The position numbers and the translations under genes are program-made. A model generated the notes under the pieces. The model searched no databases. It was given only the letters and a program-made list of their open reading frames with translations, and was not told the origin of the DNA. Source: Phenylobacterium sp. (GTDB lineage: Bacteria; Pseudomonadota; Alphaproteobacteria; Caulobacterales; Caulobacteraceae). From it: a stretch of 41,750 nt of DNA. The number at the start of each line of letters is the position of its first letter. The stretch's first letter is position 1. This document shows, one piece after another, positions 3,423 to 41,613 of this stretch. The stretch lies in contig JADBYZ010000023.1 of NCBI GenBank assembly GCA_020402745.1, positions 1 to 41,750 on the forward strand, given 5' to 3'.

Positions 3423-5663
3423 CTACTGCCGGCGCAGGGCCGCCTCCAGACTGGCCTGCGGATCGGTCTGTTGGTCATCCCCGAGTTCGACCTCCACCCG
3501 GTGCAGGACGCCGGTGAAGGGGAAGGGTGCCTCGAAGTCGGAGACCGCCGGCCTGGGCGCCCGGCCGATCTCCATGCCGATGAAGGAGGCCTGGGCCCGG
3601 TAGGTCTGCGGCAGCACCGCCGACCCGCAGGGTTGATCGTCGATCCGCAGCTCGCCCTCGGCGGTGTATTCGCCGGTCTTGCGCACCACCCAGCTGAGGG
3701 TGTGGCGTCCCGCCGGCACGGGCTGGGCGGACCGGGCGACATAGTGGCGATTCACGAAGTTGTAGTCGTGGATGAGATGGCCGTCCTTCAGATAGAGGGC
3801 GTAGCCGCCGCACCAGTCGCCCTGGGCGATGAGCACGCCCTCGGCGCCGCCCTCCGGGATGTCGACATGGGCGGTGATCCGGTAGGAGCGGTTGCGGATG
3901 TCGGGCGCCGCCGCCTGCGGGATGCGGCCGCCCCCGGGCTGGAGCACCCAGTTCCGGCGCGACGCCACGCTGTGGGGGTTGGAGCTGACGAAGCGGTTCA
4001 GGGTGTCGTCCAGGGGCAGGACGTTGCAGGCCCCGGCTTCGGAGAACCAGCGCGCGATCATCGCCTGCAGGCGCGCCGGTTCCTGCCCGGCCAGGTCGTT
4101 CATCTCGTTGAAGTCCTGGTCCAGGTTGTAGAGCTCCCACTGGTCGGCGTCGAAGGCGGTCCCGGGCTTGTGCCAGGTCACCGCCTTCCAGCCCTCATGC
4201 CAGATGCCCCGGTGGCCGAGCATCTCGAAGTACTGGGTCCGCTTGCGGGTGGGTTCGTCGCCGCCACCGAAGGAGTAGGCGAAGCTGGTCCCCTCGATGG
4301 GCTGCTGGGTGACGCCGTGGATCTCGGCCGGGGCCTGCACGCCCGTGACCTCGAGCACGGTCGGCGTGATGTCGCAGACATGGTGGAACTGGTGACGGAT
4401 CTCGCCGCCCTGCGGGATCCCCGCCGGCCAGTGTACGATCATCGGATCGCGCACCCCGCCGCCGTGGGTGTTCTGCTTGTAGCGCTTGAGCGGGGTGTTG
4501 CCGGCCATGGCCCAGCCCAGCGGGTAGTTGTTGTTGAGGTGGGCCTCGCCGATCGCGTCGATGTGCTCGAGGTTCTCGGCCAGGGTGTCGCGCACGCCGT
4601 TGAAGTAGCGAAGGGCGTTCACCGTGCCGAAGGGCGAGCCCTCCTGGCTGGCGCCATTGTCTGAGATCAGGGTGATCAGGGTGTTCTCCAGGCAGCCCTG
4701 CTCGCGCAGCCAGTTGACCAGCCGGCCCACCTGCAGGTCGGCGTGCTCGAGCATGCCGGCGAAGGCCGCCTGGAGCCGCACGGCCAGGCGCCGCTCGTCG
4801 TCGCTCAGGGCGTCCCAGGGCTTCACCCCCGGATTGCGCCCGGGCAGGACGGTGTCGGCGGGGATAAGGCCCAGGGCCTTCTGACGGGCCAGGCGGTCGG
4901 CCCGGGTTGCGTCCCAGCCCTTTTCGAAGACGGACTCGTAGCGGTCGATGAAGGCCTTGGGCGCGTGGTGCGGCGCATGCTGGGCCCCCAGGCACATGTA
5001 GAGGAAGAAGGGCTTCTCGGGCGTGATGGCGCGCTGGGCGCGGATGAAGCCGATGGACTGGTCAACGATGTCCTCCGACAGGTGATAGCCCTCGTGGTCC
5101 GGCGCCTCGATGTGATGGTTGTCGAGCACCAGTTCGGGGTGCCACTGGCTGGTCTCGCCCTCCAGGAAGCCATAATAGCGGTCGAAGCCGCGCTGCAGGG
5201 GCCATTGGTCGAAGGGCCCGGCCTGCGAGGTCTCGAAGGTGGGCGTCAGGTGCCACTTGCCGGTGGCGAAGGTATTGTAGCCGGCGGGCCTCAGCATCTC
5301 GGCCAGGGTCCCGGCGCTGCGGGCGATGCGGCCGCGCATACCCGGAAAGCCCAGGTCCCAGTCGGCCAGACCACCCATGCCCACCGAGTGGTGGTTTCGT
5401 CCGGTCAGCAGGGCGGCGCGGGTCGGCGAGCACAGGGCGGTGGTGTGGAAGTTGGTATACCTGAGGCCGCTGGCGGCCAGGGCGTCGATGTTCGGCGTGG
5501 CGATCTCCGAGCCGTAGCAGCCGAGGTCCGCGAAGCCGAGGTCGTCGAAGACGATGCAGACCACGTTGGGCGCGCCGAGAGGCGCCTTGGCAGGCTCGGG
5601 CCAGAACGGCCGGGACTCGCTGGCGGTGAGACCGAGGCCGTTGCGGTTGGGCGTCTGGCTCAT
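3423..5663 (-). CDS. arylsulfatase (type I, formylglycine-dependent)
   Basis: Hydrolyses sulfate esters, probably of aryl or alkyl compounds. The 746-aa protein has the sulfatase N-terminal metal site (IVFDDLGFADLG, residues 38-48) and the signature CSPTRAALLTGR. C78 there is the residue converted to formylglycine, and C-x-P-x-R is the pattern read by the aerobic formylglycine-generating enzyme. The C-terminal part (about 560-740) is a beta-rich domain of the kind found in long PAS-like sulfatases. No signal peptide is visible, as in the cytosolic Pseudomonas AtsA type. The start is ATG 5663, preceded by an AAGGA-type ribosome site. It is first of three same-strand genes with an amidohydrolase and a PHP hydrolase, suggesting a catabolic operon. 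No sulfatase-maturing enzyme gene lies in the window. Confidence 0.93.
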   Translation of the reverse strand: MSQTPNRNGLGLTASESRPFWPEPAKAPLGAPNVVCIVFDDLGFADLGCYGSEIATPNIDALAASGLRYTNFHTTALCSPTRAALLTGRNHHSVGMGGLADWDLGFPGMRGRIARSAGTLAEMLRPAGYNTFATGKWHLTPTFETSQAGPFDQWPLQRGFDRYYGFLEGETSQWHPELVLDNHHIEAPDHEGYHLSEDIVDQSIGFIRAQRAITPEKPFFLYMCLGAQHAPHHAPKAFIDRYESVFEKGWDATRADRLARQKALGLIPADTVLPGRNPGVKPWDALSDDERRLAVRLQAAFAGMLEHADLQVGRLVNWLREQGCLENTLITLISDNGASQEGSPFGTVNALRYFNGVRDTLAENLEHIDAIGEAHLNNNYPLGWAMAGNTPLKRYKQNTHGGGVRDPMIVHWPAGIPQGGEIRHQFHHVCDITPTVLEVTGVQAPAEIHGVTQQPIEGTSFAYSFGGGDEPTRKRTQYFEMLGHRGIWHEGWKAVTWHKPGTAFDADQWELYNLDQDFNEMNDLAGQEPARLQAMIARWFSEAGACNVLPLDDTLNRFVSSNPHSVASRRNWVLQPGGGRIPQAAAPDIRNRSYRITAHVDIPEGGAEGVLIAQGDWCGGYALYLKDGHLIHDYNFVNRHYVARSAQPVPAGRHTLSWVVRKTGEYTAEGELRIDDQPCGSAVLPQTYRAQASFIGMEIGRAPRPAVSDFEAPFPFTGVLHRVEVELGDDQQTDPQASLEAALRRQ

Positions 5664-23226: not shown

Positions 23227-25005
23227 ATGCACGCCTATCGCACCCATACCTGCGGCGCCCTGCGCGCCGGCGACACCGGCCAGTCTGTCCGCCTGTCGGG
23301 GTGGATCAATCGCAAGCGCGACCATGGCGGCCTGGTCTTCGTGGACCTGCGCGATCACTACGGCCTGACCCAGCTGGTCTTTGCGCCGGAAACCCCGGGC
23401 TTCGCCACCATTGAGCGCCTGCGGGCCGAGAGCGTCATCCGGGTGGACGGCGAGGTCGTGGCCCGCACGCCGGAGACCGTGAACCCCAACCTTGGCACGG
23501 GTGAGGTCGAGGTGCGCGTGCGCGCCGTCGAAGTGCTGTCCGAGGCCGCAGAGCTACCCCTGCCGGTCTTTGGCGAGCCCGACTATCCGGAAGAGATCCG
23601 GCTCAAGCACCGGTACCTGGACCTGCGGCGCGAGACCCTGCACCGGAACATCGTCCTGCGCTCGAAGGTCATCCACTCGATCCGCAACCGGATGATCGGC
23701 CAGGGCTTCCTGGAGTACCAGACCCCGATCCTGACGGCTTCGTCGCCGGAAGGCGCCCGGGACTTCCTGGTGCCCTCGCGGGTGCATCCCGGCACCTTCT
23801 ACGCCCTTCCCCAGGCGCCCCAGCAGTTCAAGCAGCTGCTGATGGTCTCGGGCTTTGATCGCTACTTCCAGATCGCCCCCTGTTTCCGGGACGAGGACCT
23901 GCGCGCCGACCGCAGCCTGGAGTTCTATCAGCTCGACGTCGAGATGAGCTTCGTCACCCAGGAAGATGTGTTCGCCGCCATCGAGCCCGTCATGCACGGC
24001 GTGTTCGAGGAATTCGCTGAGGGCAAGCCGGTCACCCCCTATCCCTTCCCGCGCATCCCCTACCGGGAGGCCATGCAGAAGTACGGCTCCGACAAGCCGG
24101 ACCTGCGCAACCCCCTGGTCATGCAGGATGTCTCCGAGCCCTTCCGGGGCGGCGGCTTCGGCGTCTTCGCCCGCATGCTGGAAACCCCGAAGACCGCCAT
24201 CTGGGCCATCCCGGCGCCGGGCGGCGGCAGCCGGGCCTTCTGCGACCGCATGAACAGCTGGGCCCAGTCCGAGGGCCAGCCGGGCCTGGGCTACATCTTC
24301 TGGCGCGAGGGCGAGGAGGGCGGCGCGGGGCCGATCGCCAAGAACCTCGGCCCGGAGCGCACCGAAGCCATCCGCGAACAGCTGGGCCTGAAGGTCGGCG
24401 ACGCCGCCTTCTTCGTCGGCGGTGATCCCAAGGTCTTCACCAAGTTCGCCGGCCTCGCCCGCACCCGGGTCGGGACCGAGCTGGGCCTGGTGGACGAGAA
24501 CCGCTTCGAGTTCGTCTGGATCGTCGACTTCCCGATGTTCGAGCTGAACGAGGAGACGGGGCTGGTGGACTTCTCCCACAACCCCTTCTCCATGCCGCAG
24601 GGCGAGCTGGAGGCGCTGAACACCCGCGATCCGCTGGACATCCTGGCCTACCAGTACGACATCGTCTGCAACGGCTATGAGCTCTGCTCTGGCGCCATCC
24701 GGAACCACCGGGCGGACGTTATGCTCCGGGCCTTCGAGATCGTCGGCATGGGGGCCGAGGACGTGGAGAGCGCCTTTGGCGGCATGCTCAACGCCTTCCG
24801 CTACGGCGCGCCGCCGCACGGGGGCCTGGCGCCCGGCATCGACCGGATTGTCATGCTGCTGGCCGGCCAGACGGCCATCCGCGAGGTCATCGCCTTCCCG
24901 ATGAACCAGCAGGGCCAGGACCTCTTGATGAGCGCGCCTTCGGCGGTCGAGGACAAGCAGCTGAAAGAGCTGCACATCCGCACCGCCCTGCCGATCAAGG
25001 CCTGA
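23227..25005 (+). CDS. aspS: aspartyl-tRNA synthetase
   Basis: Charges tRNA-Asp. The 592-aa protein is the bacterial type: N-terminal OB fold anticodon-binding domain ([15 protein letters not shown]), class II catalytic core with motif 1 region ([16 protein letters not shown]), motif 2 ([16 protein letters not shown]), GAD insertion (about 285-415) and motif 3 ([13 protein letters not shown]). [10 protein letters not shown] is the conserved QLDxEMSF segment. Many alphaproteobacterial AspRS also charge tRNA-Asn; that cannot be settled here. It is convergent with the pentapeptide gene, 9 bp away. Confidence 0.97.
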
Positions 25006-25014
25006 AGCCGCAGG

Positions 25015-25566
25015 TCAGTCGCGGGGGCAGGGGCGCAGGGTGAGGCCCCGGGGCAGGCGGACGGTCCCGGTCGTACAGGCGCCGTCCAGCTGCTCCTGCT
25101 TCAGGTTGCGGGCATTGCTCAGATCGACCCCGGAAAAGGTCACGCCCCGCAGGCTGGCCCCTTCAAAGTCCGCCCCATCGAAGCTGACGCCGCGGACCCG
25201 TGCGCCATCGAGGCGCACGTCCTTCAGCTGGGCGCCGTCAAAGTCGGCCCCAGTGATGGCGGCGCCGGTCAGGTCGCTGCGGGTGAGGTCCGACTTGCTG
25301 AAGTCCGACCCGGTGAACTGGACATCCCGGAGATTGGCGCCGACGAGCGCTGAACCGGAGAAATCCGCTCCAAGGAAGCGTGCGCTGGGCAGTTGCCGGC
25401 CCGACAGGTCGCAACCGATGCAGGCTCCGCCGAAGCTGACCGTGCGGGGAATGTCCTTCGCGGGCATCAAGGTCAGCGCCTGCGCCATATGCGCCCCGCC
25501 GAGGGTGGCGAGGGCGGACAGGACGACGGCTCTGGAAACAAGACGCCGGAACGGGGGAGGGTTCAT
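25015..25566 (-). CDS. secreted pentapeptide-repeat protein
   Basis: 183 aa from ATG 25566. The N-terminus is a signal peptide-like stretch (about residues 7-31). About twenty tandem pentapeptides of the A(D/N)LXX form follow (for example ADFSG, ANLRD, SDFSK, ADFDG, ADFEG), which fold as a right-handed quadrilateral beta-helix. Paired cysteines (CIGC near residue 46) and two late cysteines suggest a disulfide. Function is unknown; cytoplasmic members include gyrase-protecting Qnr proteins, but this one appears exported, so that role is unlikely. The upstream ATG 25602 is less likely because the signal sequence starts at 25566. Confidence 0.78.
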   Translation of the reverse strand: MNPPPFRRLVSRAVVLSALATLGGAHMAQALTLMPAKDIPRTVSFGGACIGCDLSGRQLPSARFLGADFSGSALVGANLRDVQFTGSDFSKSDLTRSDLTGAAITGADFDGAQLKDVRLDGARVRGVSFDGADFEGASLRGVTFSGVDLSNARNLKQEQLDGACTTGTVRLPRGLTLRPCPRD

Positions 25567-25649
25567 GGGCGGCCTATGGGCCAGGCAGACGTGCCCCGCC
25601 ACTTAAATTGCTGTAACTCAATGCCTGCCGCCATCCTCGGAGCTGCGCC

Positions 25650-25970
25650 ATGAGCCTGCGTCCTCCCCGCCTTGGACAGACCTCCGCCCCGGACCGCGAG
25701 ACCGGACTGAGCGCTCTTGAGGCCGAGATGATGTCGGAGGCCGCTGCGGCCCTTGGCCGGGCCGGGAACCGCGCCGAGGCGGCCCTCGCCCGGCTGGCCG
25801 ATCCCGAAGCCCTCGCTGAGGCGGGGCGGGAGGTGCTCCTGCGCCAGGCTGCAGAAGCTGTCTGGAGCTTCTTCATCCAGCGGGAAGCCTGCGGGCTGAA
25901 GGACCAGCGGCAGGTGATCGCCGACCTGGGAATCCCCCGGGCCGTACTGGTCCGCCTGGGTGCCCGCTAG
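25650..25970 (+). CDS. small conserved protein, possible DUF6665 member
   Basis: 106 aa with no transmembrane segment or known catalytic motif. The middle is Ala/Leu/Glu-rich and helical (LEAEMMSEAAAALGRAG onward). The C-terminal half, FFIQREACGLKDQ with LGIPRAVLVRLGA, matches my memory of a family restricted to Caulobacterales and relatives, often labelled DUF6665; the label is uncertain. The gene is divergent from the pentapeptide gene with 83 bp between starts, and marks the last backbone gene before the accessory segment at 26118-29590. Confidence 0.6.
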   Translation: MSLRPPRLGQTSAPDRETGLSALEAEMMSEAAAALGRAGNRAEAALARLADPEALAEAGREVLLRQAAEAVWSFFIQREACGLKDQRQVIADLGIPRAVLVRLGAR

Positions 25971-26117
25971 GGGATAGAACCTGACATTGGAGACCCGTTG
26001 GGGACGGCTCGGCGAGGGTCCGCTTGCGGGCGACGAGGCAACGGGAAGAAGCGACCCGAAGCGGCGCCCCCGCCGGCAGCGGTTGCTGAGCTCAACGCGA
26101 TATGAAAACCTTGTTTG

Positions 26118-26852
26118 ATGGCTGATCTTCTCTTCGCCGATGCCGAACTTGCGGCGCTCTATGAAGCGATGAATCCCTGCCGGGACGACTACGACTTCTA
26201 CCGCCCAATGGTGATGGCCGCCCACTCGGTCCTGGACGTCGGCTGCGGGACCGGGTCCATGCTGCATGAGGCCCGCGACGCTGGGCATACCGGGCGGCTT
26301 TGTGGCCTCGATCCTGCACCGGGCATGTTGGCCCAAGCGCGCCGGCGCGACGATGTCGAATGGGTGCTCGGCGACCTTTCATCGGTCGCTTGGGACGCAG
26401 AGTTCGACCTGATCGTCATGACGGGGCACGCCTTCCAGGTCCTTTTAGGCGACGACGAACTGCGCGACGCCCTGGCAAGCATTCATGCAGCCCTGAGGCC
26501 GGGCGGCCGCTTCGCCTTTGATACACGCAATCCCTCCGCCCGGGCTTGGGAGACATGGGAAACCGAGGTTCGCGATGCCTTCGACGGCTCCCACGGCGAA
26601 AGGGTGCGGGTGAGCCGCAAAGTCACAACGCCCTTCAATGGACAGGTGGTGTCGTTCTCACACACGTTCCAGAGCGCAGTGTGGGACGCGCCGCGAGTCA
26701 GCAACAGCACCCTGCGGTTTTTCAGCAAGGCCGAGCTCGACGCCGAACTGGCGCGTGCGGGCTTGGCACCGGATGCTCAGTTCGGAGACTGGGACAAGAG
26801 CCCTCTCAGTGAGACTAGCCCCGAAATCATAACCATCGCCCGCCGGATATGA
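26118..26852 (+). CDS. class I SAM-dependent methyltransferase
   Basis: 244 aa from ATG 26118 (TTG 26115 directly before it is possible). The SAM-binding motif I is VLDVGCGTGSMLHEA near residue 38, motif II is GLDPAPGML, and later GDLSSVAWDAEFDLIVMTG and LRPGGRFAFDTRNPSARAWE complete the Rossmann fold. Target is unknown. Base composition looks lower in GC than the housekeeping block. It is the first of three accessory genes, and a repeat carrying the reductase 3-prime end begins 10 bp after its stop. The gap 25971-26117 shows nothing recognisable. Confidence 0.82.
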   Translation: MADLLFADAELAALYEAMNPCRDDYDFYRPMVMAAHSVLDVGCGTGSMLHEARDAGHTGRLCGLDPAPGMLAQARRRDDVEWVLGDLSSVAWDAEFDLIVMTGHAFQVLLGDDELRDALASIHAALRPGGRFAFDTRNPSARAWETWETEVRDAFDGSHGERVRVSRKVTTPFNGQVVSFSHTFQSAVWDAPRVSNSTLRFFSKAELDAELARAGLAPDAQFGDWDKSPLSETSPEIITIARRI

Positions 26853-26862
26853 GGTTCGCAAT

Positions 26863-27060
26863 CCCCCCATCTCGGAACTTCGGAAGGTCCGCTCACGGGT
26901 AGAACGCCCAAGTGGCGACTTCTGCAGTCGGGCCGCAGCTAGGCGGGTGCCAGGCCTCAGAAGCTATCCGCTGGATCAGGTTCCGATCGGCAGGAACTGG
27001 TCATCGGATCGAGACTTGATCGGGTTGTCTTGATGCAAAGCCGTCAGCCGGTGAAATTCG
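26863..27060. repeat. diverged copy of the reductase-gene 3-prime end (copy 1)
   Basis: Two blocks match the 3-prime region of the reductase-like gene at 29571-29680. Block a, 26863-26918, matches the sequence beyond that gene's stop (tctcggaacttcggaag then gctcacgggtagaacgcc) with few differences. Block b, about 27028-27060, matches the stop region (cttgatgca, then agccgtcagccggtga). About 105 bp unrelated to the other copies lies between the blocks. The rest of the 26853-27266 gap holds nothing I recognise, apart from the sugar-dehydrogenase ribosome site. Confidence 0.75.
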
Positions 27061-27266
27061 ACCCATTGCGGACATTGTCAGCCGCGTGCCGCTGATTCAA
27101 TATCCGGGGTGGGGAGCAAACTTGGAGGCGTCGTGAGCGATCCGGAACAAGCAAGAGCGAACCCGCTCAGAAACATCGAAGCGAAGACAGGGTCGTCGAT
27201 TAGCGGGATGCGCGCGGCAGTATCCGCGGCGGGCCACGATCTTAACCCCTCGACAGGTGACATCCC

Positions 27267-28475
27267 ATGATCAAGCCGACCTCGACTGTTACGAACAAGC
27301 CGGACCGTACTCCTCGTCCGTGGGCGATTGCGCTCGCCGCCGCATTCGTGCTGACCGGCGGGGCCGTCGCCGCCGTCGCGGCCCTAAAGCAGCCCTCAGC
27401 CCCACCCAACGCGCCGTTCCAGATCGAGGAAATCGCCGACCTCGACCAGCCCTGGGCCATGACCTTCTTGCCCGACGGCCGCATGTTGATCACCGAGAAG
27501 GCTGGCCAGCTGTTAATGCTCTCAGCAGACGGCAAACAGCGAAAGACCGTGACCGGCGCCCCCGCCGTGACATCCCAGGGACAGGGCGGGCTGATGGATG
27601 TCGTGCTTCACCCCCGGTTCGCCAAGAACCGGATGGTTTACCTCAGCTATTCGGAAGCCGCCGGGAAGGACTCGAGCCTGGTCCTGGCGCGCGGCGTGTT
27701 CAATGACGGAGACGCCCCGTCGCTAAGCAACGTGCAGACGCTTTTCCGCGGCCCCAAGTATGACGCCAGGGCGGGCCACTATTCTGGCCGCATCGCGTTC
27801 TCGCCCGAAGGCAAGCTGTTTTTCGCCGTCGGTGATCGCCAGCAGTGGGACGGTTTCCAGCGCACGGAGCCGCAGGATATCAGAATCCTCTCTGGCAAGG
27901 TTCTGCGCCTCAACGACGACGGCACGCCGGCAGCTGGCAATCCCCTGGCGGCGCGCGGCGGTGATCCCGCCATCTGGACCTATGGCCACCGCAACCTCCT
28001 CGGCCTGGCGTTCGACGCAAACGGCAACCTGTGGGAGCAGGAGATGGGCCCTCTGGCTGGGGACGAGGTCAATTTAATCCTGCCCGGCCGCAACTACGGA
28101 TGGCCGGTCGTCTCCAATGGCGACAACTACCCGGGCCCGCCGACCAATGGGGCGGCGATCCCGGATCATAGCCCTGGCGACGGCTTTGAGGCGCCGAAGG
28201 TCTGGTGGAATCCCGCGATATCGCCCGCGGGGATGATGGTCTATTCCGGCAAGCTCTGGCCGCAGTGGCGTGGCGATCTCTTCATCGGCGGTTTGTCCAG
28301 TCAGAGTCTGGTCAGGGTCGATGTCAACGGAACTGAGGCCACGAAGGGCGACCAGTTCGCGCTGGGTACGCGCATTCGCGAGCCGGAGGAGGGGCCTGAC
28401 GGCTCGATCTATCTTCTCACCGATGGCCGGCGCGGCTTCGACGGGAAGCTGGTGAAGCTGACGCCCAAGAGGTGA
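27267..28475 (+). CDS. PQQ-dependent aldose sugar dehydrogenase-like protein
   Basis: 402-aa protein of the soluble glucose/sorbosone dehydrogenase (YliI/Asd) family, a six-bladed beta-propeller that uses PQQ to oxidise sugars in the periplasm. The N-terminus has a hydrophobic signal or anchor (residues about 19-40). Family motifs are DQPWAMTFLPDGRMLITEK near residue 60, GQGGLMDVVLHPRF near 104 (catalytic His region), YSGRIAFSPEGKLFFAVGD near 172, IWTYGHRN, and NYGWPVVSNGDNY. It stands alone between two copies of the repeat. No PQQ synthesis genes are in the window, so the cofactor source is unknown. Confidence 0.88.
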   Translation: MIKPTSTVTNKPDRTPRPWAIALAAAFVLTGGAVAAVAALKQPSAPPNAPFQIEEIADLDQPWAMTFLPDGRMLITEKAGQLLMLSADGKQRKTVTGAPAVTSQGQGGLMDVVLHPRFAKNRMVYLSYSEAAGKDSSLVLARGVFNDGDAPSLSNVQTLFRGPKYDARAGHYSGRIAFSPEGKLFFAVGDRQQWDGFQRTEPQDIRILSGKVLRLNDDGTPAAGNPLAARGGDPAIWTYGHRNLLGLAFDANGNLWEQEMGPLAGDEVNLILPGRNYGWPVVSNGDNYPGPPTNGAAIPDHSPGDGFEAPKVWWNPAISPAGMMVYSGKLWPQWRGDLFIGGLSSQSLVRVDVNGTEATKGDQFALGTRIREPEEGPDGSIYLLTDGRRGFDGKLVKLTPKR

Positions 28476-28550
28476 CGCAAGGGGCCGTCCAAGAGTGACG
28501 CCTGGCGTACAGCGGACCGGCGCAACCTGGAGTTTTGCCCAGCGGAAGCG

Positions 28551-28680
28551 GGAAGGTCTGCTCACGGGTAGAACGCCCAAGCGGCCGCGACGTGATCTTG
28601 CTCTCTTGATGCAGAGCCGTCAGCCGGTGAGGTCGCCCTCGGCGCGGACGCCGCAGGTGTCGCAGATGAAGTCTGCACCC
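28551..28680. repeat. perfect 130-bp direct repeat, copy 2 (reductase 3-prime end)
   Basis: Identical over 130 bases to 29591-29720, offset 1040. It contains the last 19 codons and stop of the reductase-like gene in the same orientation (minus strand) plus about 69 bp beyond the stop. It carries no start and is not a gene. Identity ends abruptly at both sides. The remaining 28476-28775 gap holds nothing else recognised. Confidence 0.95.
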
Positions 28681-28775
28681 AGGTGCCGAGACAACGGTGA
28701 GGGTCGACCCATGGCGGACCTTCAGGTGGTCGCGGCGGGCTTGCCAAGCCACGCTGGCTCGGAACAAATTGGTCT

Positions 28776-29552
28776 ATGCGCCACTGGACCAAACAGACTC
28801 CGTTCACCGATCCAGGCGAAAGCGCAGCGATGCTCGCAACCATCGGCCCCGAACCCGAATGCGTCATCGCAGCGATACAGGGGTTTTTGATCCACGGTGG
28901 CGCCATCGAATACTATGGCCTAGCGCCACAAGAATTCAGCCGTGAAACCCTCTCGGTCGAAAGTCGGCTTGGGGCCATTCTGACGGAGGATGACCGTCCG
29001 TTAAGCATCGAGCGCTTGCCGCAAGATCGAGCTCTCGGCACCTGCCGAGACTATGCGGTCTTGGTCTGCGCTGCGATGCGAGAGCACCGGCGTCCAGCTC
29101 GGGTTCGTTGCGGCTTCGCCTCATATCTTGGCGGAGGGAAGTGGGAGGATCACTGGCTCTGCGAGCTTTGGTCAAGGGGCCGTTGGCAGCGCATTGACGC
29201 CCAGTTGGACCCTGTCCTCCAAGACGCGTTCCAAACTCAGTTCTCGCCTGCGGACGTACCGCAGGACGCGTTCCTCACCGGCGAGACCGCTTGGCGAGAA
29301 TGTCGCGCGGGTCGCCTAGATCCAGCAAGCTTGGGTCATGGCGACGCCACGGGACTGTGGTTTGTCTACGTAAACCTCGTCCGTGATCGGCTTGCACTTG
29401 AGGATCGAATAACCTCAATTTGGGACGACTGGCGCACGGCAGCATCGAACCCGCTCCACATGAGTGCAGAGATGTTGGCCTCGGCTGATGAATTGGCCAA
29501 CAACGACCCGATTGGGGCGTCGTCGATCATCCCCTGGTGGGTCAGGACGTAG
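28776..29552 (+). CDS. transglutaminase-like cysteine hydrolase
   Basis: 258 aa. The papain-like transglutaminase fold is indicated by a spaced triad: C90 in GTCRDYAVLVCAAMR, H126 in KWEDHWLCELW, and D141 in GRWQRIDAQLDP. The motif around the Cys resembles bacterial transglutaminase-core proteins that act as proteases or amidases. No signal peptide is seen. It is the only gene in the 910-bp interval between the two identical 130-bp repeats, and its base composition looks lower in GC than the core. The start ATG 28776 has only a weak GGA upstream. Confidence 0.75.
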   Translation: MRHWTKQTPFTDPGESAAMLATIGPEPECVIAAIQGFLIHGGAIEYYGLAPQEFSRETLSVESRLGAILTEDDRPLSIERLPQDRALGTCRDYAVLVCAAMREHRRPARVRCGFASYLGGGKWEDHWLCELWSRGRWQRIDAQLDPVLQDAFQTQFSPADVPQDAFLTGETAWRECRAGRLDPASLGHGDATGLWFVYVNLVRDRLALEDRITSIWDDWRTAASNPLHMSAEMLASADELANNDPIGASSIIPWWVRT

Positions 29553-29590
29553 AGACGGCGGGGACCGCTTTCCCCCCTTCTCGGAACTTC

Positions 29591-29720
29591 GGAAGGTCTG
29601 CTCACGGGTAGAACGCCCAAGCGGCCGCGACGTGATCTTGCTCTCTTGATGCAGAGCCGTCAGCCGGTGAGGTCGCCCTCGGCGCGGACGCCGCAGGTGT
29701 CGCAGATGAAGTCTGCACCC
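29591..29720. repeat. perfect 130-bp direct repeat, copy 3 (native reductase 3-prime end)
   Basis: The copy attached to the complete reductase-like gene, identical to 28551-28680. Its leftward flank (29571-29590, tctcggaacttcgg) is shared with copy 1 but is altered in copy 2 (agcggaagcg before the identity begins). Confidence 0.95.
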
Positions 29721-32125
29721 TTTCGCACGAGGGCCGTGTCGCCGCAGTCCGGGCAGACGTCAGCGTCCCTGCGCAGTCCGCCAAGCGCACCGCGCTCCTG
29801 CGCCGTCGGCAGGAAGACCAGGTTGTCGGGCGCCGCGCCCCGGGAAAAGCCCCGGGAGATGAAGCGCGAGACCGGCTGGGGGTCCTGCGCCTCCTGCGGC
29901 TGGCCATCGGCGGCGCCGCGACCGAGACCGTCGGCGTTCAGCTCTCCGTCGGCGTTCGCCAGGTCGTTCCGGCCCAGGTAGGAGATGCCAAGCTCCCGGA
30001 AGATATAGTCCAGGATCGAGGTCGCCGAGCGGACGCTGTCATTGCCGGTCACCTGCCCCGCGGGCTCGAAGCGGGTGAAGACGAAGGCGTCCACGAACTC
30101 GTCCAGGGGCACGCCGTATTGAAGGCCCAGCGAGATCGAGACGGCGAAGTTGTTCATCAGCGAGCGGAAGGCGGCGCCTTCCTTGTGCATGTCGATGAAG
30201 ATCTCGCCCAGCTCGCCGTCGTCATACTCCCCGGTGTGCAGGTAGACCTTGTGGCCGCCCACGGAGGCCTTCTGGATGTAGCCTTTGCGGCGATCCGGCA
30301 GCTTGCGCCGGGTGGGCGGGCGTTCGATCTCCACCCGCCTTTCGATGATGCGTTCTTCCGAAGGATCGACCTTCGGCGCTTCCCCCGAATGGGGCCCCAG
30401 CTTCGGATCGGGGCGGGCGGTGCTCTCGGAGGAAAGGATCGGCGGCCTGCGCTCGACCATCGGCCGAACGATGACGCCCTGCGCCTTGTCAAGCCTCGCC
30501 ACCAAGTCCCTCACCTCGGTTGCGGTGGCCGCCTTGAGCTCGACGACCGGCGGCATGGCGAGGAGGGGGGCGAGGGCGCAAGCCATGGCGATGCGCGCGG
30601 CGGGGCCGACCTCGTCTCCCAAGGTCAGCACTTCGATCTGCTCAGGCGACAGCCCGGGAAGATTGGACAGTTTCCCCGCGCCCAGGACCGCGGCGTCCGC
30701 CAGAGCCAGTTGCCCAGCGCTGAATCCCATCCGCACCGGCAGATTGAGCTCAGGGTCAGAGAGCTCGGTCTCGCTCAGGCCCAGGATATCGGTGAGAAAG
30801 CCCGGGTCGATCACCTTTGGGGAGAGGGCGTCGCCAAGCCGCTCGGCGAAGGGGAGGGCGGACTCCACGGCGGCGATCTCGTGATCGGTGAAACCCAGGG
30901 ACTCCAGGGCGCAACGATCAACTCCGGGGGCGGCGGCCAGCGTCCTGCACCCAAGGGCGTGAAGGCGAGCGTCCGCCGTATCGAGGCCCAGGGCCTCAAG
31001 CGCCCTGAGGGCGGGGCCCGACAGTGTGCGAAGACAGGACCCGTCAGAGGTCTCAATCCGAAGTATGGGGCCTCCGGATGGGCCTCCGGCGGTATCCGCC
31101 GCGCCGAGCCGAAGGGCGAGGTCCGGGTCGTTGAAGAGCGCGAGGCCGACATCCAAGCCCGCGGGGATGGCTCTCTGGGCGCGCTTGAAGAGGGATCGCG
31201 CAGTCTTGCGAGCCTTGTCGGAGTCAAAGGCTAACCCCTGGGCCAAGATCCAGTCGCCGAGGCCGGCCAGGGTGATCAGGCCCTTATGGCCAGATCCCGA
31301 GAGGGCCAGGGCCAGGTCTCTCACCGCCTGTTCGAAGGCGGCCGTTTCAAAATCTTCCCCGAGCCCGAACGCCGTGAGGTTGACGGCGGCGCGGACCCTT
31401 CCCGCTGCGGCGGCGAGGGCTGTGGCGGTTGCTACGGTATCCGCAATGCCAACTGCACTCACGAATACGGAGAGAGGAAGACTCGCGGAACTCGGAGAGA
31501 GCACGAGACGCAGGTGGGCCCTCGGAAGGTCTGGAACCGTCGATCGCCAGACCGTCTCGCCCGCGCGGGCCAATTCGAGGGCCTCGCCGATGAGATCCCC
31601 CGGGACTCCGATCGCCCTGGCGCCCTCGACGGCTCGGGCAAGCTTGGGATTGTCCCCTGGATTGGCGCAGGCATCGGGGTCGCCCTCGCATTGCGCGACA
31701 GCGTCAAGGATATCTTGCAGCCGTCCTGCTGCGACATCCGCTACGGCCTCGGCCAGCCTCTCCCCGCGTATGGTGGACAAGAGCGGCTCGAGACGCGCAT
31801 CGAGGTCTTCCGCTTGGGCGTCCACCAAGGTCGGCGCCGGACCCTCGGGTGAGCCAATCGCCGCCGCACCCTTCAACATCAGGGTTGCCAGACGGTCAGA
31901 CAGATCGCGTTCGTCCGCCTTTCCGCCCAAGCGGCCTTGTCCGCGACTGGCGGCGGCGATCCTGTCGGCCAGAGACCCGATGGCGCAACCAAGGTCCTCG
32001 GCGCCGCCGAGAACGTTCATCCAGGCCTCGACCTGGGCGTCGGTCCAGCTGGAGGGTGCGAGAACCTCCACGTATCGGTCCACCAGCTCGACTTCGCGTG
32101 GCTCAAGGATGGGTGGGGTGTGCAT
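29660..32125 (-). CDS. class II (B12-type) ribonucleotide reductase-like protein with degenerate catalytic core
   Basis: 821 aa from ATG 32125 (GGAGG 8 bases upstream); full alphaproteobacterial NrdJ is about 1200 aa. The C-terminal part is clearly NrdJ-like: basic [18 protein letters not shown] near residue 605, then a TSCPD-type domain ([67 protein letters not shown]) to about 723, and two terminal Cys pairs (CPDCG, CDTCG). Weaker matches to the NrdJ barrel remain ([46 protein letters not shown]). The reductase active-site motif N-x-C-x-E is absent, so activity is not expected. It is regulated by two NrdR-like boxes upstream, and its 3-prime end is the repeated insertion site. Confidence 0.75.
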
Positions 32126-32171
32126 CTCATAGGCCTCCAGAGGCGGAGGTTAGGGCGGCGGCTCAGGGCCG

Positions 32172-32219
32172 ACAATAGATGTTGCGGCCGCAGGGTCGGG
32201 CATCCACAAGATGTTGCGG
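32172..32219 (-). promoter_or_regulatory. tandem NrdR-like boxes upstream of the reductase-like gene
   Basis: Two related 16-bp near-palindromes: acaatagatgttgcgg at 32172-32187 and ccacaagatgttgcgg at 32204-32219. Their shared atgttgcgg halves are exactly 32 bp apart, three helical turns. This matches the known arrangement of paired NrdR boxes in front of ribonucleotide reductase genes. They lie 47-94 bp before ATG 32125. NrdR binding is inferred. Confidence 0.7.
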
Positions 32220-32231
32220 CGCCAGCATCGC

Positions 32232-32260
32232 TGGACGCTGAGAGCTGCGCCACATATAGT
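32232..32260 (+). promoter_or_regulatory. sigma-70-like promoter for NDUFA12-family gene
   Basis: TGGACG (32232-32237) and TATAGT (32255-32260) with a 17-base spacer, about 35 bp before the GTG at 32296. Predicted from sequence only; it lies just beside the NrdR-like boxes of the divergent gene. Confidence 0.45.
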
Positions 32261-32295
32261 CCGCTCGCGTTGAACCTAAGTGGAACTGTAAGGCC

Positions 32296-32691
32296 GTGCT
32301 GAGAGCAATCTTCACCTGGTGGAACGGGGCCACAATCGGCGCCGCTTTTCATATCAAGCGGCGGAGCGTCCTCGTCGGCGAGGACGATTTTGGCAACCGC
32401 TATTACGAGGCGCGCGACGCCAGCGACTCCTACGATGGCCGCCGCCGCCGCTGGGTGATCTACAGGGGTTATCCCGACGCTTCCAAGGTGCCGGCCGAGT
32501 GGCACGGCTGGCTTCACTACACTTTCGACGATCCGCCGACGGTGGCGCCCCTGAAGCGGCGCTCGTGGGAGAAGGACCATCAGCCGAATCTGACCGGCAC
32601 CGTTCACGCCTGGCGTCCCAAGGGCTCCATCACACGGGGTGGGGAACGCGCGCGCGCGTCTGGCGACTATGAGGCCTGGCGCCCTGAGTAG
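32296..32691 (+). CDS. NDUFA12-family complex I accessory subunit
   Basis: 131 aa. Alphaproteobacteria and mitochondria share this supernumerary subunit of NADH:ubiquinone oxidoreductase. Recognisable segments are VGEDDFGNRYYEARD near residue 28, RRRWVIYRGYPDASKVP near 49, and the C-terminal KDHQPNLTGTVHAWRPKGS. It probably supports assembly or stability on the membrane arm; no catalytic residues are expected. The start is GTG 32296. The next gene begins 2 bp after its stop, a pairing common in alphaproteobacteria. Confidence 0.92.
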   Translation: MLRAIFTWWNGATIGAAFHIKRRSVLVGEDDFGNRYYEARDASDSYDGRRRRWVIYRGYPDASKVPAEWHGWLHYTFDDPPTVAPLKRRSWEKDHQPNLTGTVHAWRPKGSITRGGERARASGDYEAWRPE

Positions 32692-32692
32692 G

Positions 32693-33364
32693 ATGCGACG
32701 GCCTCCGAAATCCAGGGTCCCGGTCGCGGTTGTTCTGGCGTCCTTCACGATTCTGATCTGGGGGGGGTGGGCTCCGGCGCAGCAGGCGCCGCCGCCGGCT
32801 GGACCGGAGACCCCGGATATGGGCGCGGCCCTTGTGGAAGAAGCGCCGCCGGCTGTCGTGCAGGCGCCTCCGCCAGCGGTTGCGCCTCCGCTTCCGGCCT
32901 CCGGAGTGGCCCCGGCTGAACCGCCTGCGCGTCGGGTTGCCGAGCGGCCGGCGGAGAGCCTCAAGCAGCGAGAGCGTTTCAACGCAGCGGTGCTTCAGGC
33001 CGTGGACAAGGTCACCGCGGAGACCATCCGCTTCGAGGCCCCGGTCGGGCAGCCCGTCCGTTACAAGTCGCTGATCCTGACGGTAAGAGCGTGCGAGCGA
33101 ACGGCGGTGGATGAACCCACCGAGGACTCGATCGCCTACCTGACCGTGGAGTCACAGCCGCGCAGTCAGGGAGGGCGTCCGGCTCCTGGACCGCGACAGG
33201 TTTTCCGGGGCTGGATCTACGCCTCCTCCCCCGGGCTGAACGGGCCCGAGCACCCGGTCTACGACGCCTGGCTGATCACCTGCAGGACTTCGACGCCGCT
33301 CAGGGCGGCGGGGGGATCCAGCACCCCCTCGACAGCCAAGGCTCCGGCCAGCCGCTCAAGGTAG
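32693..33364 (+). CDS. DUF2155-domain secreted protein
   Basis: 223 aa from ATG 32693, which immediately follows the NDUFA12 gene. An N-terminal signal or anchor (about residues 8-26) is followed by a long Pro/Ala-rich linker (residues 30-85). The DUF2155 domain has the typical YKSLILTVRACERT, VFRGWIYASSPGLNG and VYDAWLITC. Two cysteines (in RACER and LITCR) may pair. Function is unknown; the NDUFA12-DUF2155-aat cluster is recurrent in alphaproteobacteria. The last 35 codons, beyond LITC, are poorly conserved and overlap the convergent aat gene by 106 bp. Confidence 0.85.
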   Translation: MRRPPKSRVPVAVVLASFTILIWGGWAPAQQAPPPAGPETPDMGAALVEEAPPAVVQAPPPAVAPPLPASGVAPAEPPARRVAERPAESLKQRERFNAAVLQAVDKVTAETIRFEAPVGQPVRYKSLILTVRACERTAVDEPTEDSIAYLTVESQPRSQGGRPAPGPRQVFRGWIYASSPGLNGPEHPVYDAWLITCRTSTPLRAAGGSSTPSTAKAPASRSR

Positions 33365-33903
33365 GCGGAGCGCGGGATTTCCTCGGCGCCGAGGCTTGCC
33401 AGGTGATCGGTGATGAACTGGGCGTCCAGCAGCTGGAACCCGCCGAGGATGAGCCGCGCCGCCAGGTGGGCCAGGGCGACCTTGGAGGCGTCGGTCTCGA
33501 TCGAGAACATGCTCTCGCCGAAGAAGGCGCCCTTGAGGCTGACGCCGAAGAGCCCTCCGACCAGCCGCCCGTTCCTCCAGGTCTCCACGGAATGGGCGGA
33601 GCCGTCCGCGTGCATCGCCTGGTACATCCGCTTCAGGGCCGGATTGATCCAGGCGCCGGGCCGCTCCGGATCGGCGCAGGCGTCCAGCACCGCCTGGAAG
33701 GCCGAATTGACCCTGACCTCAAAGCGGTCCTGCCGAAGGGTCCGCTGCAGCCGGCGGGGGAGGGCGAGCCCCTTCAGGGGGAAGACCCCCCGGAACTCGG
33801 GTTCGACCAGGAAGACCGACGGGTCCGTCGGAGATTGGGCCATGGGGAAGACCCCACGGGCGTAGAAGTCCAATGCAGGGTGGGGACGCGGCCGTCGGCT
33901 CAC
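33259..33903 (-). CDS. aat: leucyl/phenylalanyl-tRNA-protein transferase
   Basis: Adds Leu or Phe to proteins with N-terminal Arg or Lys, making them substrates for ClpS-ClpAP (N-degron pathway). 214 aa, with the family segments [10 protein letters not shown] at residue 13, [32 protein letters not shown] and [17 protein letters not shown]. The start is GTG 33903, overlapping the accC stop (GTGA) and preceded by GGAGG at 33908-33912; it is probably translated by coupling with accC. Confidence 0.94.
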
Positions 33904-37053: not shown

Positions 37054-37320
37054 ATGAAACTTCCCATCGGCAAGCCCTGGTTCGGGCCCAGGCGGTTCGG
37101 CTTCGGCGTTTCACCCATGAACGGGCAGGGTTGGGCCTGTATTGGGCTCTACATCCTCACCATGGCGATGATCCCGTCCCTGATGGGTCGGGAGGCGAGG
37201 GGCGCCGACGCCCTTGGGATCCTGGCCGCGCTTCTGGGTTGCACGGCCCTGCTGCTGGTCGTGGTCTGGCTCAAGATGGACAGATCCAAACCCCTGCGCT
37301 GGCGCTGGGGCGAAGACTAA
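37054..37320 (+). CDS. small two-helix membrane protein, unknown function
   Basis: 88 aa. Two hydrophobic segments are visible: about residues 27-45 (CIGLYILTMAMIPSLMG) and 53-73 (LGILAALLGCTALLLVVVWL), followed by a basic, Trp-rich tail ending WRWGED. The start ATG 37054 has an AGGA ribosome site, and a TATATC sequence about 35 bp upstream may be its promoter -10. The 3-prime third of this gene is repeated at 40185-40294. I do not recognise the family. Confidence 0.6.
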   Translation: MKLPIGKPWFGPRRFGFGVSPMNGQGWACIGLYILTMAMIPSLMGREARGADALGILAALLGCTALLLVVVWLKMDRSKPLRWRWGED

Positions 37321-37434
37321 GCCTTGGATTCAGGGCTCAGTGTGGATCGAGCCGATGCATGACGGTGGCAGCGATGATGATGGCGGAGACGAAGGTGCGC
37401 GCGCATCGATCATCAATCGTTCGGGCATTGGCCC
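37211..37434. repeat. source copy of a duplicated segment (end of the 88-aa gene plus IS remnant)
   Basis: Matches 40185-40405 with about ten substitutions and one 3-bp gap in about 224 bp. It covers the last 36 codons of the small membrane-protein gene and the first part of the adjacent IS remnant. The other copy lacks the gene's 5-prime half. Confidence 0.9.
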
Positions 37435-37752
37435 TTGGCCGTCAGTTCGGGGAAGATGCGGTTGAAAACCCCAGGCTGGCTCCGGCGTACAAAGCGGTTG
37501 TAGATTATCATGTGCGGTCCGCACTCCCTCGGCGCATCGCGCCAGCGCAGGCCGTTCTTGATCACGAAGATGATCCCTGAGATCACGCGTCTGTCATCCA
37601 CTCGTGGACACCGCGAGACTGCGGGAAGCAAGGTTCGATCCGGCGTATCGGCGCTTCTGAAAGCTAAGACAGGTGACCCATGGCAGCCGCTTCCCGCCAC
37701 GAGTGAATCCGATCAAGAATGTTCCGGGAGTCCCTTTAATGGGTCCTGAGCG
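37327..37752 (-). mobile_element. internally deleted IS5-family remnant
   Basis: The minus strand encodes the N-terminal part of an IS5-type transposase (VDDRRVISGIIFVIKNGL, then YNRFVRRSQPGVFNRIFPEL). It then runs through RLMIDA directly into RCARTFVSAIIIAATV, a C-terminal transposase motif. The region between, with most of the DDE catalytic core, is deleted. Imperfect ends resemble gattcag..ctcag (37327) and gctcagg..cca read inward from 37752. It cannot encode an active transposase. Confidence 0.8.
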
Positions 37753-41459: not shown

Positions 41460-41548
41460 GGTTCAGAACTGATTGTGGATCGAGCCAGAATATGACGGTG
41501 GCTGCGATGATGATAGCGGAGAAGAAGGTGCGCGCGCATCGACCCTAG
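41460..41548 (-). mobile_element. IS5-family end fragment
   Basis: The minus strand reads RCARTFFSAIIIAATVIFWL then DPQSVL and a stop, the C-terminal tail of an IS5-type transposase. It is related to, but diverged from, the fragments at 37344 and 40318. It lies 35 bp upstream of the prs start, giving prs an IS fragment on each side, both in the same orientation. Confidence 0.75.
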
Positions 41549-41613
41549 TGGAAATGGATGCGCCACCAGTCCTTAGGTCTCCCAGACATGATCTCGACCT
41601 TGTGGCGCTGGCT

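What the first reader, a model, noticed from the sequence alone, without database searches (positions are those of the whole stretch)
26863..29720. Three accessory segments stacked at the 3-prime end of a reductase-like gene
Reading toward the native gene, copies of its 3-prime end alternate with single genes: methyltransferase, copy 1, sugar dehydrogenase, copy 2, transglutaminase-like gene, copy 3 attached to the full gene at 29660-32125. Each inserted unit carries one plus-strand gene and one copy of the target end. This resembles site-specific integration that rebuilds the target gene 3-prime end, as tRNA- or gene-end-targeting islands do, but no integrase or transposase is present. It may be a recombination hotspot for single-gene cargo, or a relic of tandem islands.
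Basis: partly seen in the sequence, partly recalled or inferred. Interest (0 to 1): 0.75.

Follow-up and report, generated by a model that had tools for sequence, protein, structure and literature searches.

The report
Gene cassettes bounded by palindromic repeats
Next to a conserved bacterial gene, single foreign genes have been swapped in and out at a short palindromic DNA repeat, and a look-alike repeat marks where genes are shuffled on plasmids of quite different bacteria.

Summary
Copies 2 and 3 are a perfect 130-bp repeat (28551-28680, 29591-29720) carrying the last 61 nt of the TSCPD gene at 29660-32125; copy 1 is two diverged pieces with 11 nt of the gene. Of 16 related loci read, five have no insert between the two convergent flanking genes, three have only the sugar dehydrogenase, others carry different genes beside it, and one phosphotransferase cassette sits in two slots. 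The window's four junctions carry halves of a 54-bp palindromic element. A profile built from other loci gives six hits in the 41.75-kb window, all at three of these junctions; the fourth matches a half-site pattern. The profile matches 85 of 101 genus genomes; the core occurs in Caulobacter, Sphingomonas, Lysobacter and others. A sister form is common on enteric plasmids; on five Pantoea plasmid stretches 31 of 39 synteny breakpoints lie within 60 bp of it, 6.6 expected for random intergenic points. No searched paper prints either form. Best reading: integrase-less gene cassettes exchanged by recombination inside the element; the enzyme is not identified.

The parts
25650..25970 (+). DUF6665 gene, left flank of the hotspot
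   Evidence: Pfam PF20370, E 1.8e-16; next to the TSCPD gene without insert in G070, G017, G031, G060, G091
26017..26064 (+). element at the DUF6665 | methyltransferase junction
   Evidence: exact pattern match of 47 bp at 26018-26064; profile hits 26017-26042 (E 0.0011) and 26052-26064 (E 5.2)
26118..26852 (+). methyltransferase cargo gene
   Evidence: Pfam Methyltransf_25, E 4.5e-19; matches in 5 of 101 genus genomes including its own at E<=1e-25
   Evidence: profile hit 26886-26912, E 0.16
27057..27076 (+). right half-element before the sugar dehydrogenase
   Evidence: profile hit, E 0.00035
27267..28475 (+). glucose/sorbosone dehydrogenase (GSDH) cargo gene
   Evidence: Pfam GSDH, E 8.1e-115; found in 11 of 17 loci compared, window included
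28551..28680 (+). 130-bp repeat, copy 2: left half-element (28555-28581) and last 61 nt of the TSCPD gene (28620-28680)
   Evidence: identical to 29591-29720; profile E 1.1
28704..28723 (+). right half-element before the transglutaminase gene
   Evidence: profile hit, E 0.0026
28776..29552 (+). transglutaminase-like cargo gene
   Evidence: Pfam Transglut_core, E 7.8e-8; matches in 7 of 101 genus genomes including its own at E<=1e-10
29591..29720 (+). 130-bp repeat, copy 3: left half-element (29595-29609) and 3-prime end of the TSCPD gene
   Evidence: not reached by the profile at E<=10
29660..32125 (-). TSCPD-domain gene, right flank of the hotspot
   Evidence: Pfam TSCPD, E 3.5e-9; C-terminus found in 96 of 101 genus genomes at E<=1e-40

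Best explanation
The stretch is a hotspot of small gene cassettes between two convergent conserved genes. A cassette is one gene (sometimes two or three) bordered by a dispersed imperfect-palindrome element (majority consensus GGTCCGCTTTCGGGCnCnGAGCCnAnGACCGCTTTCGACCCATAGCGGACCTTC). Shown: cassette content differs between close relatives, sites without insert exist, borders tend to fall on the element, and one cassette occupies two slots. Inferred: cassettes are exchanged by recombination inside the element, which acts as portable short homology, without a recombinase gene of their own at the site. Crossovers near but not in the element drag neighbouring gene ends along; one such event left 130 bp of the TSCPD gene end on both sides of the transglutaminase cassette. 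I hold a general short-homology route, cellular or phage-encoded, more likely than a dedicated recombinase acting in trans.
For: Locus comparison in 16 relatives. Independent profile: 6 of 6 window hits at junctions, junction hits up to 27.1 bits in relatives. Breakpoints among ten loci: 41 of 68 within 30 bp of a half-element, 22.1 expected at random intergenic points, largest of 2000 trials 35. Hybrid element in G030: the GSDH-side arm GGTCTGC joined to the phosphotransferase-side CGACCCTCAGCGGAC that is whole in G092 and G114. Pantoea plasmids with the sister form: 31 of 39 breakpoints within 60 bp, 6.6 expected; intergenic gaps with an element are breakpoints in 26 of 43 cases, without in 4 of 89. 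Integron integrase passes its cut-off in 1 of 17 element-bearing genomes, not in the window's.
Against: Homologues of the methyltransferase and transglutaminase elsewhere in the genus (37-74% identity) have no profile hit beside them in 6 of 6 fetched loci. 27 of 68 breakpoints are not near a half-element, and the half-site pattern used there was drawn up from these same junctions. A test for whole cassettes shared between genomes outside the locus gave 35 of 236 ends near an element (8.2 expected) but rests mainly on one repeated gene family. An E. coli prophage pair diverges 223 bp beyond the element. No excision or circle was observed. That the alpha and enteric forms are one family is inferred from arms and layout.
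Confidence: 0.6

Rival explanations
1. A dedicated site-specific recombinase encoded elsewhere acts on the element, as IntI does on attC; the cassettes are true site-specific mobile units.
For: Fixed length: 50 of 52 matches are 47 bp although the spacer was left free from 12 to 42. Arms nearly invariant (copies picked by search). One-strand arrays. In four Pantoea copies the base after the palindrome follows the left neighbour and the next bases the right one.
Against: A fifth Pantoea copy with the same left neighbour (L217:10419) and the right border of another shared cassette do not follow that base rule. Crossovers at the window's locus scatter and include gene ends. No linked recombinase was found; none was sought systematically.
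Confidence: 0.27
2. Minimal-mobile-element style exchange: homologous recombination in the conserved flanking genes swaps whole gene blocks, and the palindromes are incidental terminator-like hairpins.
For: Two conserved convergent flanks with different whole-gene cargo in different species, as in the definition of that class (PMC3898611, passage).
Against: Cargo changes independently on either side of GSDH, and one cassette lies in two slots; breakpoints concentrate on elements in Pantoea.
Confidence: 0.07
3. Relic of tandem genomic islands or of a tandem duplication of the TSCPD gene end.
For: 130-bp perfect direct repeat; 306-nt TSCPD-end and 123-nt aspS-end copies in G091.
Against: Does not account for the element at borders without gene-end copies, such as DUF6665 | GSDH in G069 and G117.
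Confidence: 0.03
4. Integron cassettes without integrase (CALIN).
For: Single genes, repeated imperfect palindromes, one-strand arrays.
Against: No attC core-box pair in 0 of 34 element copies, 0 of 2 Pantoea strings, 0 of 4 window junctions (box consensus recalled); integrase over cut-off in 1 of 17 genomes.
Confidence: 0.02
5. Assembly error at the 130-bp perfect repeat.
For: The repeat is perfect; the transglutaminase slot was seen only in this genome.
Against: The same kinds of border recur in separately assembled relatives, such as G092 and the one-contig genome G069.
Confidence: 0.01

Closest known systems
Integron gene cassettes and CALINs
   Same: Mostly single-gene units in arrays, separated by a repeated imperfect palindrome; described in PMC8618304 (passages)
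   Different: No attC core boxes, no integron integrase except in 1 of 17 genomes tested; genes run in either direction by my reading of one array
Acinetobacter pdif (xrs) modules
   Same: Adaptive genes flanked by short recombination sites and no recombinase in the module; exchange inferred from comparison (PMC11705084, passages, which also reports that the tested cassettes were not excised)
   Different: Sequence not like dif: 7 and 8 of 28 positions shared with the E. coli dif (recalled)
Minimal mobile elements of Neisseria
   Same: Different whole-gene cassettes between two conserved genes in different strains, no mobility gene (PMC3898611, passage)
   Different: Here the borders lie on a dispersed element and not only on the conserved flanks
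PeSL motifs of T4-like phages
   Same: Repeated intergenic stem-loops held to mediate shuffling of genes (PMC4503421, passage; original papers not read)
   Different: PeSLs are promoter plus terminator motifs of T4-like phages; this element is mainly on chromosomes and plasmids, with a few phage records, and no promoter role was tested

Membership tests
Integron / CALIN | attC core boxes (RYYYAAC ... GTTRRRY, recalled consensus) | tested here: not met
   0 of 34 element copies, 0 of 2 Pantoea strings, 0 of 4 window junctions
Integron | integron integrase in the genome (TIGR02249 over cut-off) | tested here: not met
   1 of 17 element-bearing genomes over cut-off (a Rhodanobacter, G128), window's genome not
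Integron / CALIN | arrays of mostly single genes between repeats of one orientation | tested here: met
   L131 9 of 9, L157 8 of 8, L168 7 of 7 copies on one strand; cargo of one to three genes at the window's locus
pdif / Xer modules | 28-bp site resembling dif | tested here: not met
   7 and 8 of 28 positions shared with the recalled E. coli dif, no gaps; the hosts' own dif sites were not located
Minimal mobile element | different whole-gene cassettes between two conserved genes in different strains | tested here: met
   DUF6665 / TSCPD interval in 16 relatives, different species rather than strains
Minimal mobile element | incorporated solely by homologous recombination | not testable with these tools
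   needs recombination assays
PeSL | promoter joined to a stem-loop | not tested
   only single-strand folds of five stretches, z from -2.26 to 0.13
Known RNA family | Rfam match at gathering score | tested here: not met
   0 matches in window 24000-33500

The most novel reading that the evidence does not exclude
The element is the recombination site of an undescribed gene-cassette system spread over alpha-, beta- and gammaproteobacteria with its own trans-acting recombinase: an integron-like gene-shuffling system, present even in many E. coli genomes and enteric plasmids, that went unnamed because its sites lie in unannotated intergenic DNA.
Probability: 0.28. Interest if true: 0.95.

Novelty: new variant of a known kind. 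Interest (0 to 1): 0.8.

Why it matters
Single accessory genes often sit between core genes with no mobility gene in sight. A widespread border element at which such genes are swapped would explain many of these cases, would give a sequence handle for finding cassettes in chromosomes, plasmids and prophages, and makes the mechanism of integrase-less gene swapping testable in a laboratory E. coli strain.

Tried and rejected
Classical integron: rejected on attC boxes and integrase. XerCD/dif: the 11-6-11 layout of the core suggested it; the sequence does not support it. Rfam: nothing. Single-strand folding: z from -2.26 to 0.13 on five stretches, not decisive. Uptake-signal idea (arms recall the Actinobacillus uptake sequence, from memory): not pursued; the own genome has 1 profile match at E<=0.01. 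Whole cassettes shared between genomes outside the locus: weak. Methyltransferase and transglutaminase as cassettes elsewhere: no profile hit beside 6 of 6 homologues fetched, of 10 listed in other genomes. E. coli matches to the alpha form at 84-88% with E about 3 are near chance by themselves; the enteric-form search (E<=10) is stronger but includes short and weak matches, and many listed ones lie inside ydfV. Literature: ten searches. The two that searched for the element's strings returned 17 papers whose titles show other subjects; I opened none of these. The library lacks most subscription papers, so absence in print is not proven.
Full report
OBSERVATION. The stretch 25.6-32.7 kb reads: DUF6665 gene (+), methyltransferase (+), glucose/sorbosone dehydrogenase GSDH (+), transglutaminase-like gene (+), TSCPD-domain gene (-), NDUFA12 gene (+). 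Two 130-bp stretches, 28551-28680 and 29591-29720, are identical; the first holds 61 nt of the TSCPD gene end plus 69 bp downstream. Outside the window the own genome has no match to the repeat better than E 0.0165.

RELATIVES. The flanks were sought in 101 genomes of the genus: DUF6665 found in 82, the TSCPD C-terminus in 96. The genus is probably Phenylobacterium: a G078 locus (L102) is identical over 8 kb to a record titled Phenylobacterium sp. palsa_901 (L117). I compared 16 related loci with the window. DUF6665 and TSCPD stand tail to tail, 16-157 bp apart and without insert, in G070, G031, G060, G017 and G091. Only GSDH lies between them in G093, G069 and G117. GSDH has company in G007 (TonB receptor and NikR-like genes, right), G118 (fumarylacetoacetate-hydrolase-like gene, right, contig end), G062 (phytanoyl dioxygenase-like and amidohydrolase-like genes, right; its left side is cut by the contig end), G030 (acetyltransferase left, phosphotransferase right), G092 (the same phosphotransferase, left; no DUF6665 match) and the window (methyltransferase left, transglutaminase right). 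In G114 the phosphotransferase lies left of the GSDH flank at the contig end, after three further ORFs. In G091 GSDH sits instead between aspS and the pentapeptide gene, with a 306-nt copy of the TSCPD end and a 123-nt copy of the aspS end. G019 (L207) had no DUF6665 match; L204 is the TSCPD contig of G118. Names of genes that were not run against Pfam are my reading of the translations.

THE ELEMENT. The junctions share GGTCYGCT..CGGG and CGACCC...GCGGAC half-sites. A pattern of both halves with a free spacer gave 52 matches in 21 of 101 genus genomes against 6 for the reversed control; 50 of 52 were exactly 47 bp; 26 were in G078. In 20 fetched loci a fuzzy search gave 58 hits against 10 in reversed sequence; the 58 include palindromes scored on both strands. 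Thirty-four copies picked by these searches gave an alignment and a sequence profile R1; the window took no part. R1 gives six hits at E<=10 in the 41,750 bases of the window, at 26017, 26052, 26886, 27057, 28555 and 28704, all at three of the four junctions, the best with E 0.00035 and three of them weaker than E 0.1. The fourth junction (29595) is found only by the half-site pattern. In 15 of the related loci R1 scores up to 27.1 bits. In the genus 85 of 101 genomes match at E<=0.01; G078 reaches 57, the number scored. Of the five genomes without insert at the locus, G070 and G060 have no match, G017 and G031 three each, G091 two; G030, which has inserts, also shows none under that search's stricter filters.

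SPREAD. An exact scan of species genomes for the core gave 68 stretches, among them Phenylobacterium, Caulobacter, Brevundimonas, Sphingomonas, Lysobacter, Dyella, Rhodanobacter, Pseudomonas mosselii, Burkholderiales, Gallionella, Chromatiales and a Ca. Eremiobacteraeota record. They hold 212 copies at up to 2 substitutions against 0 in reversed sequence; 80 of the 212 are the seeds of the scan. Several stand in one-strand arrays: L131 9 of 9, L157 8 of 8, L168 7 of 7. In L131 (Caulobacter sp. 17J80-11) the copies border small ORFs that, by eye, run in both directions while the elements keep one orientation. Over L060-L183 neighbouring copies agree in strand 197 times and disagree 67 times; overlapping loci inflate these counts. 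IMG/VR gave 2 stretches.

A SECOND SYSTEM. A plasmid search with the core led to Pantoea, whose form is a pair of palindromes, GTCCGCTTCTGGCACAAAGCGGAC and GTCCGCTATGAGCGAAAAGCGGAC, about 15 bp apart, with single palindromes as well. That form matches 2818 plasmid records (E<=1; Klebsiella 1714), 3657 of 5426 E. coli genomes (E<=10; 770 of 3796 records at 95% identity or more over the matched part, which can be short) and 21 phage records, among them P2-like phages. On five Pantoea stretches, chosen because they hold the element, 57 copies were found against none in reversed sequence; 55 of 57 are intergenic. Pairwise comparison gives 39 breakpoints: 31 within 60 bp and 25 within 10 bp of a copy, against 6.6 and 2.6 for random intergenic points (largest of 2000 trials 15 and 9). 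Gaps with a copy are breakpoints in 26 of 43 cases, gaps without in 4 of 89. One event is seen from both plasmids, so the Fisher value (2.4e-12) overstates independence. At one palindrome, left neighbours (a 6-kb block or the DUF2268 gene) and right neighbours (a chemotaxis gene or others) occur in different combinations in L210, L217, L218 and L219. There the base after the palindrome follows the left neighbour and the next bases the right; a further copy with the DUF2268 neighbour (L217:10419) and the right border of the shared SDR cassette do not follow this. That this form and the window's are one family is inferred.

BREAKPOINTS AT THE LOCUS. I gave ten of the 17 loci (window and nine relatives; left out: the five without insert, L204 and L207). 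41 of 68 breakpoints lie within 30 bp of a half-element, 22.1 expected at random intergenic points (largest of 2000: 35), 6.1 over the whole zone. The half-site pattern came from these junctions, so this is less independent. The 27 misses lie mainly at the TSCPD stop codon, at the end of the 130-bp repeat inside that gene, just outside the 30-bp limit, at the G007 right border, and in G093 where the left element is missing.

MECHANISM. Shown: turnover of content, sites without insert, elements at borders, one cassette in two slots. Inferred: exchange by recombination in the element. In G030 the element left of the phosphotransferase is a hybrid of GSDH's arm GGTCTGC and the cassette's CGACCCTCAGCGGAC, as a crossover inside the element predicts. 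On the enzyme: integron integrase passes its cut-off in 1 of 17 element-bearing genomes and not in the window's; weaker matches, at the level of other tyrosine recombinases, occur in all 17 and in all 14 control genomes. Scattered crossovers and copied gene ends favour short-homology recombination; fixed element length and conserved arms favour a dedicated enzyme. I lean to the first.

AGAINST. Homologues of the methyltransferase and transglutaminase in other genus genomes have no profile hit beside them in 6 of 6 fetched loci. An E. coli prophage pair diverges 223 bp beyond the element. The cross-genome test gave 35 of 236 ends near an element, 8.2 expected, mostly from one gene family. No circle or excision was observed.

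KNOWN SYSTEMS. Compared from passages with integrons (PMC8618304), Xer modules (PMC11705084), minimal mobile elements (PMC3898611) and PeSLs (PMC4503421). It works like these but fails the site tests of the first two. In the searched library the element strings appear in no paper on such a repeat, judged by the listed titles.

Noticed in passing
L098 6749-7615 and 11300-12008; related stretches in L101, L103, L104, L108, L112: A family of genes beginning MDIHKPKPWHG... recurs in G078 and G099, often directly after an element, with a shared start and differing remainder.
   Followed up: partly
L168 4570-4755 and L182 441-626: Dyella tabacisoli and a Ca. Eremiobacteraeota record share 187 bp at 88% ending at an element: transfer between phyla, or a binning error.
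   Followed up: no
L197 1700-3790 (G091): GSDH lies between aspS and the pentapeptide gene with copies of the TSCPD and aspS gene ends: the cassette has moved, or a duplication was trimmed.
   Followed up: partly
L218 24388-24990: A 200-aa site-specific integrase gene is itself among the cargo between two elements on a Pantoea plasmid.
   Followed up: no
L214 4005-4028, L216 4005-4028, L230 3001-3026: Element-like palindromes sit beside extra genes (restriction endonuclease, NUDIX hydrolase) in P2-like prophages and a P2-like phage.
   Followed up: partly
window 29660-32125: The 821-aa flanking gene matches Pfam only by its TSCPD domain; its N-terminal part is far less conserved than its C-terminus among relatives.
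   Followed up: no
window about 37300-37450 and 41480-41550: ORF translations share a similar motif (MTVAAMMMAETKVRAH / MTVAAMMIAEKKVRAH), suggesting a repeated sequence near the window's right end.
   Followed up: no
window 4236-4250: One left half-site match lies inside a long minus-strand ORF (3423-5663), probably by chance.
   Followed up: no
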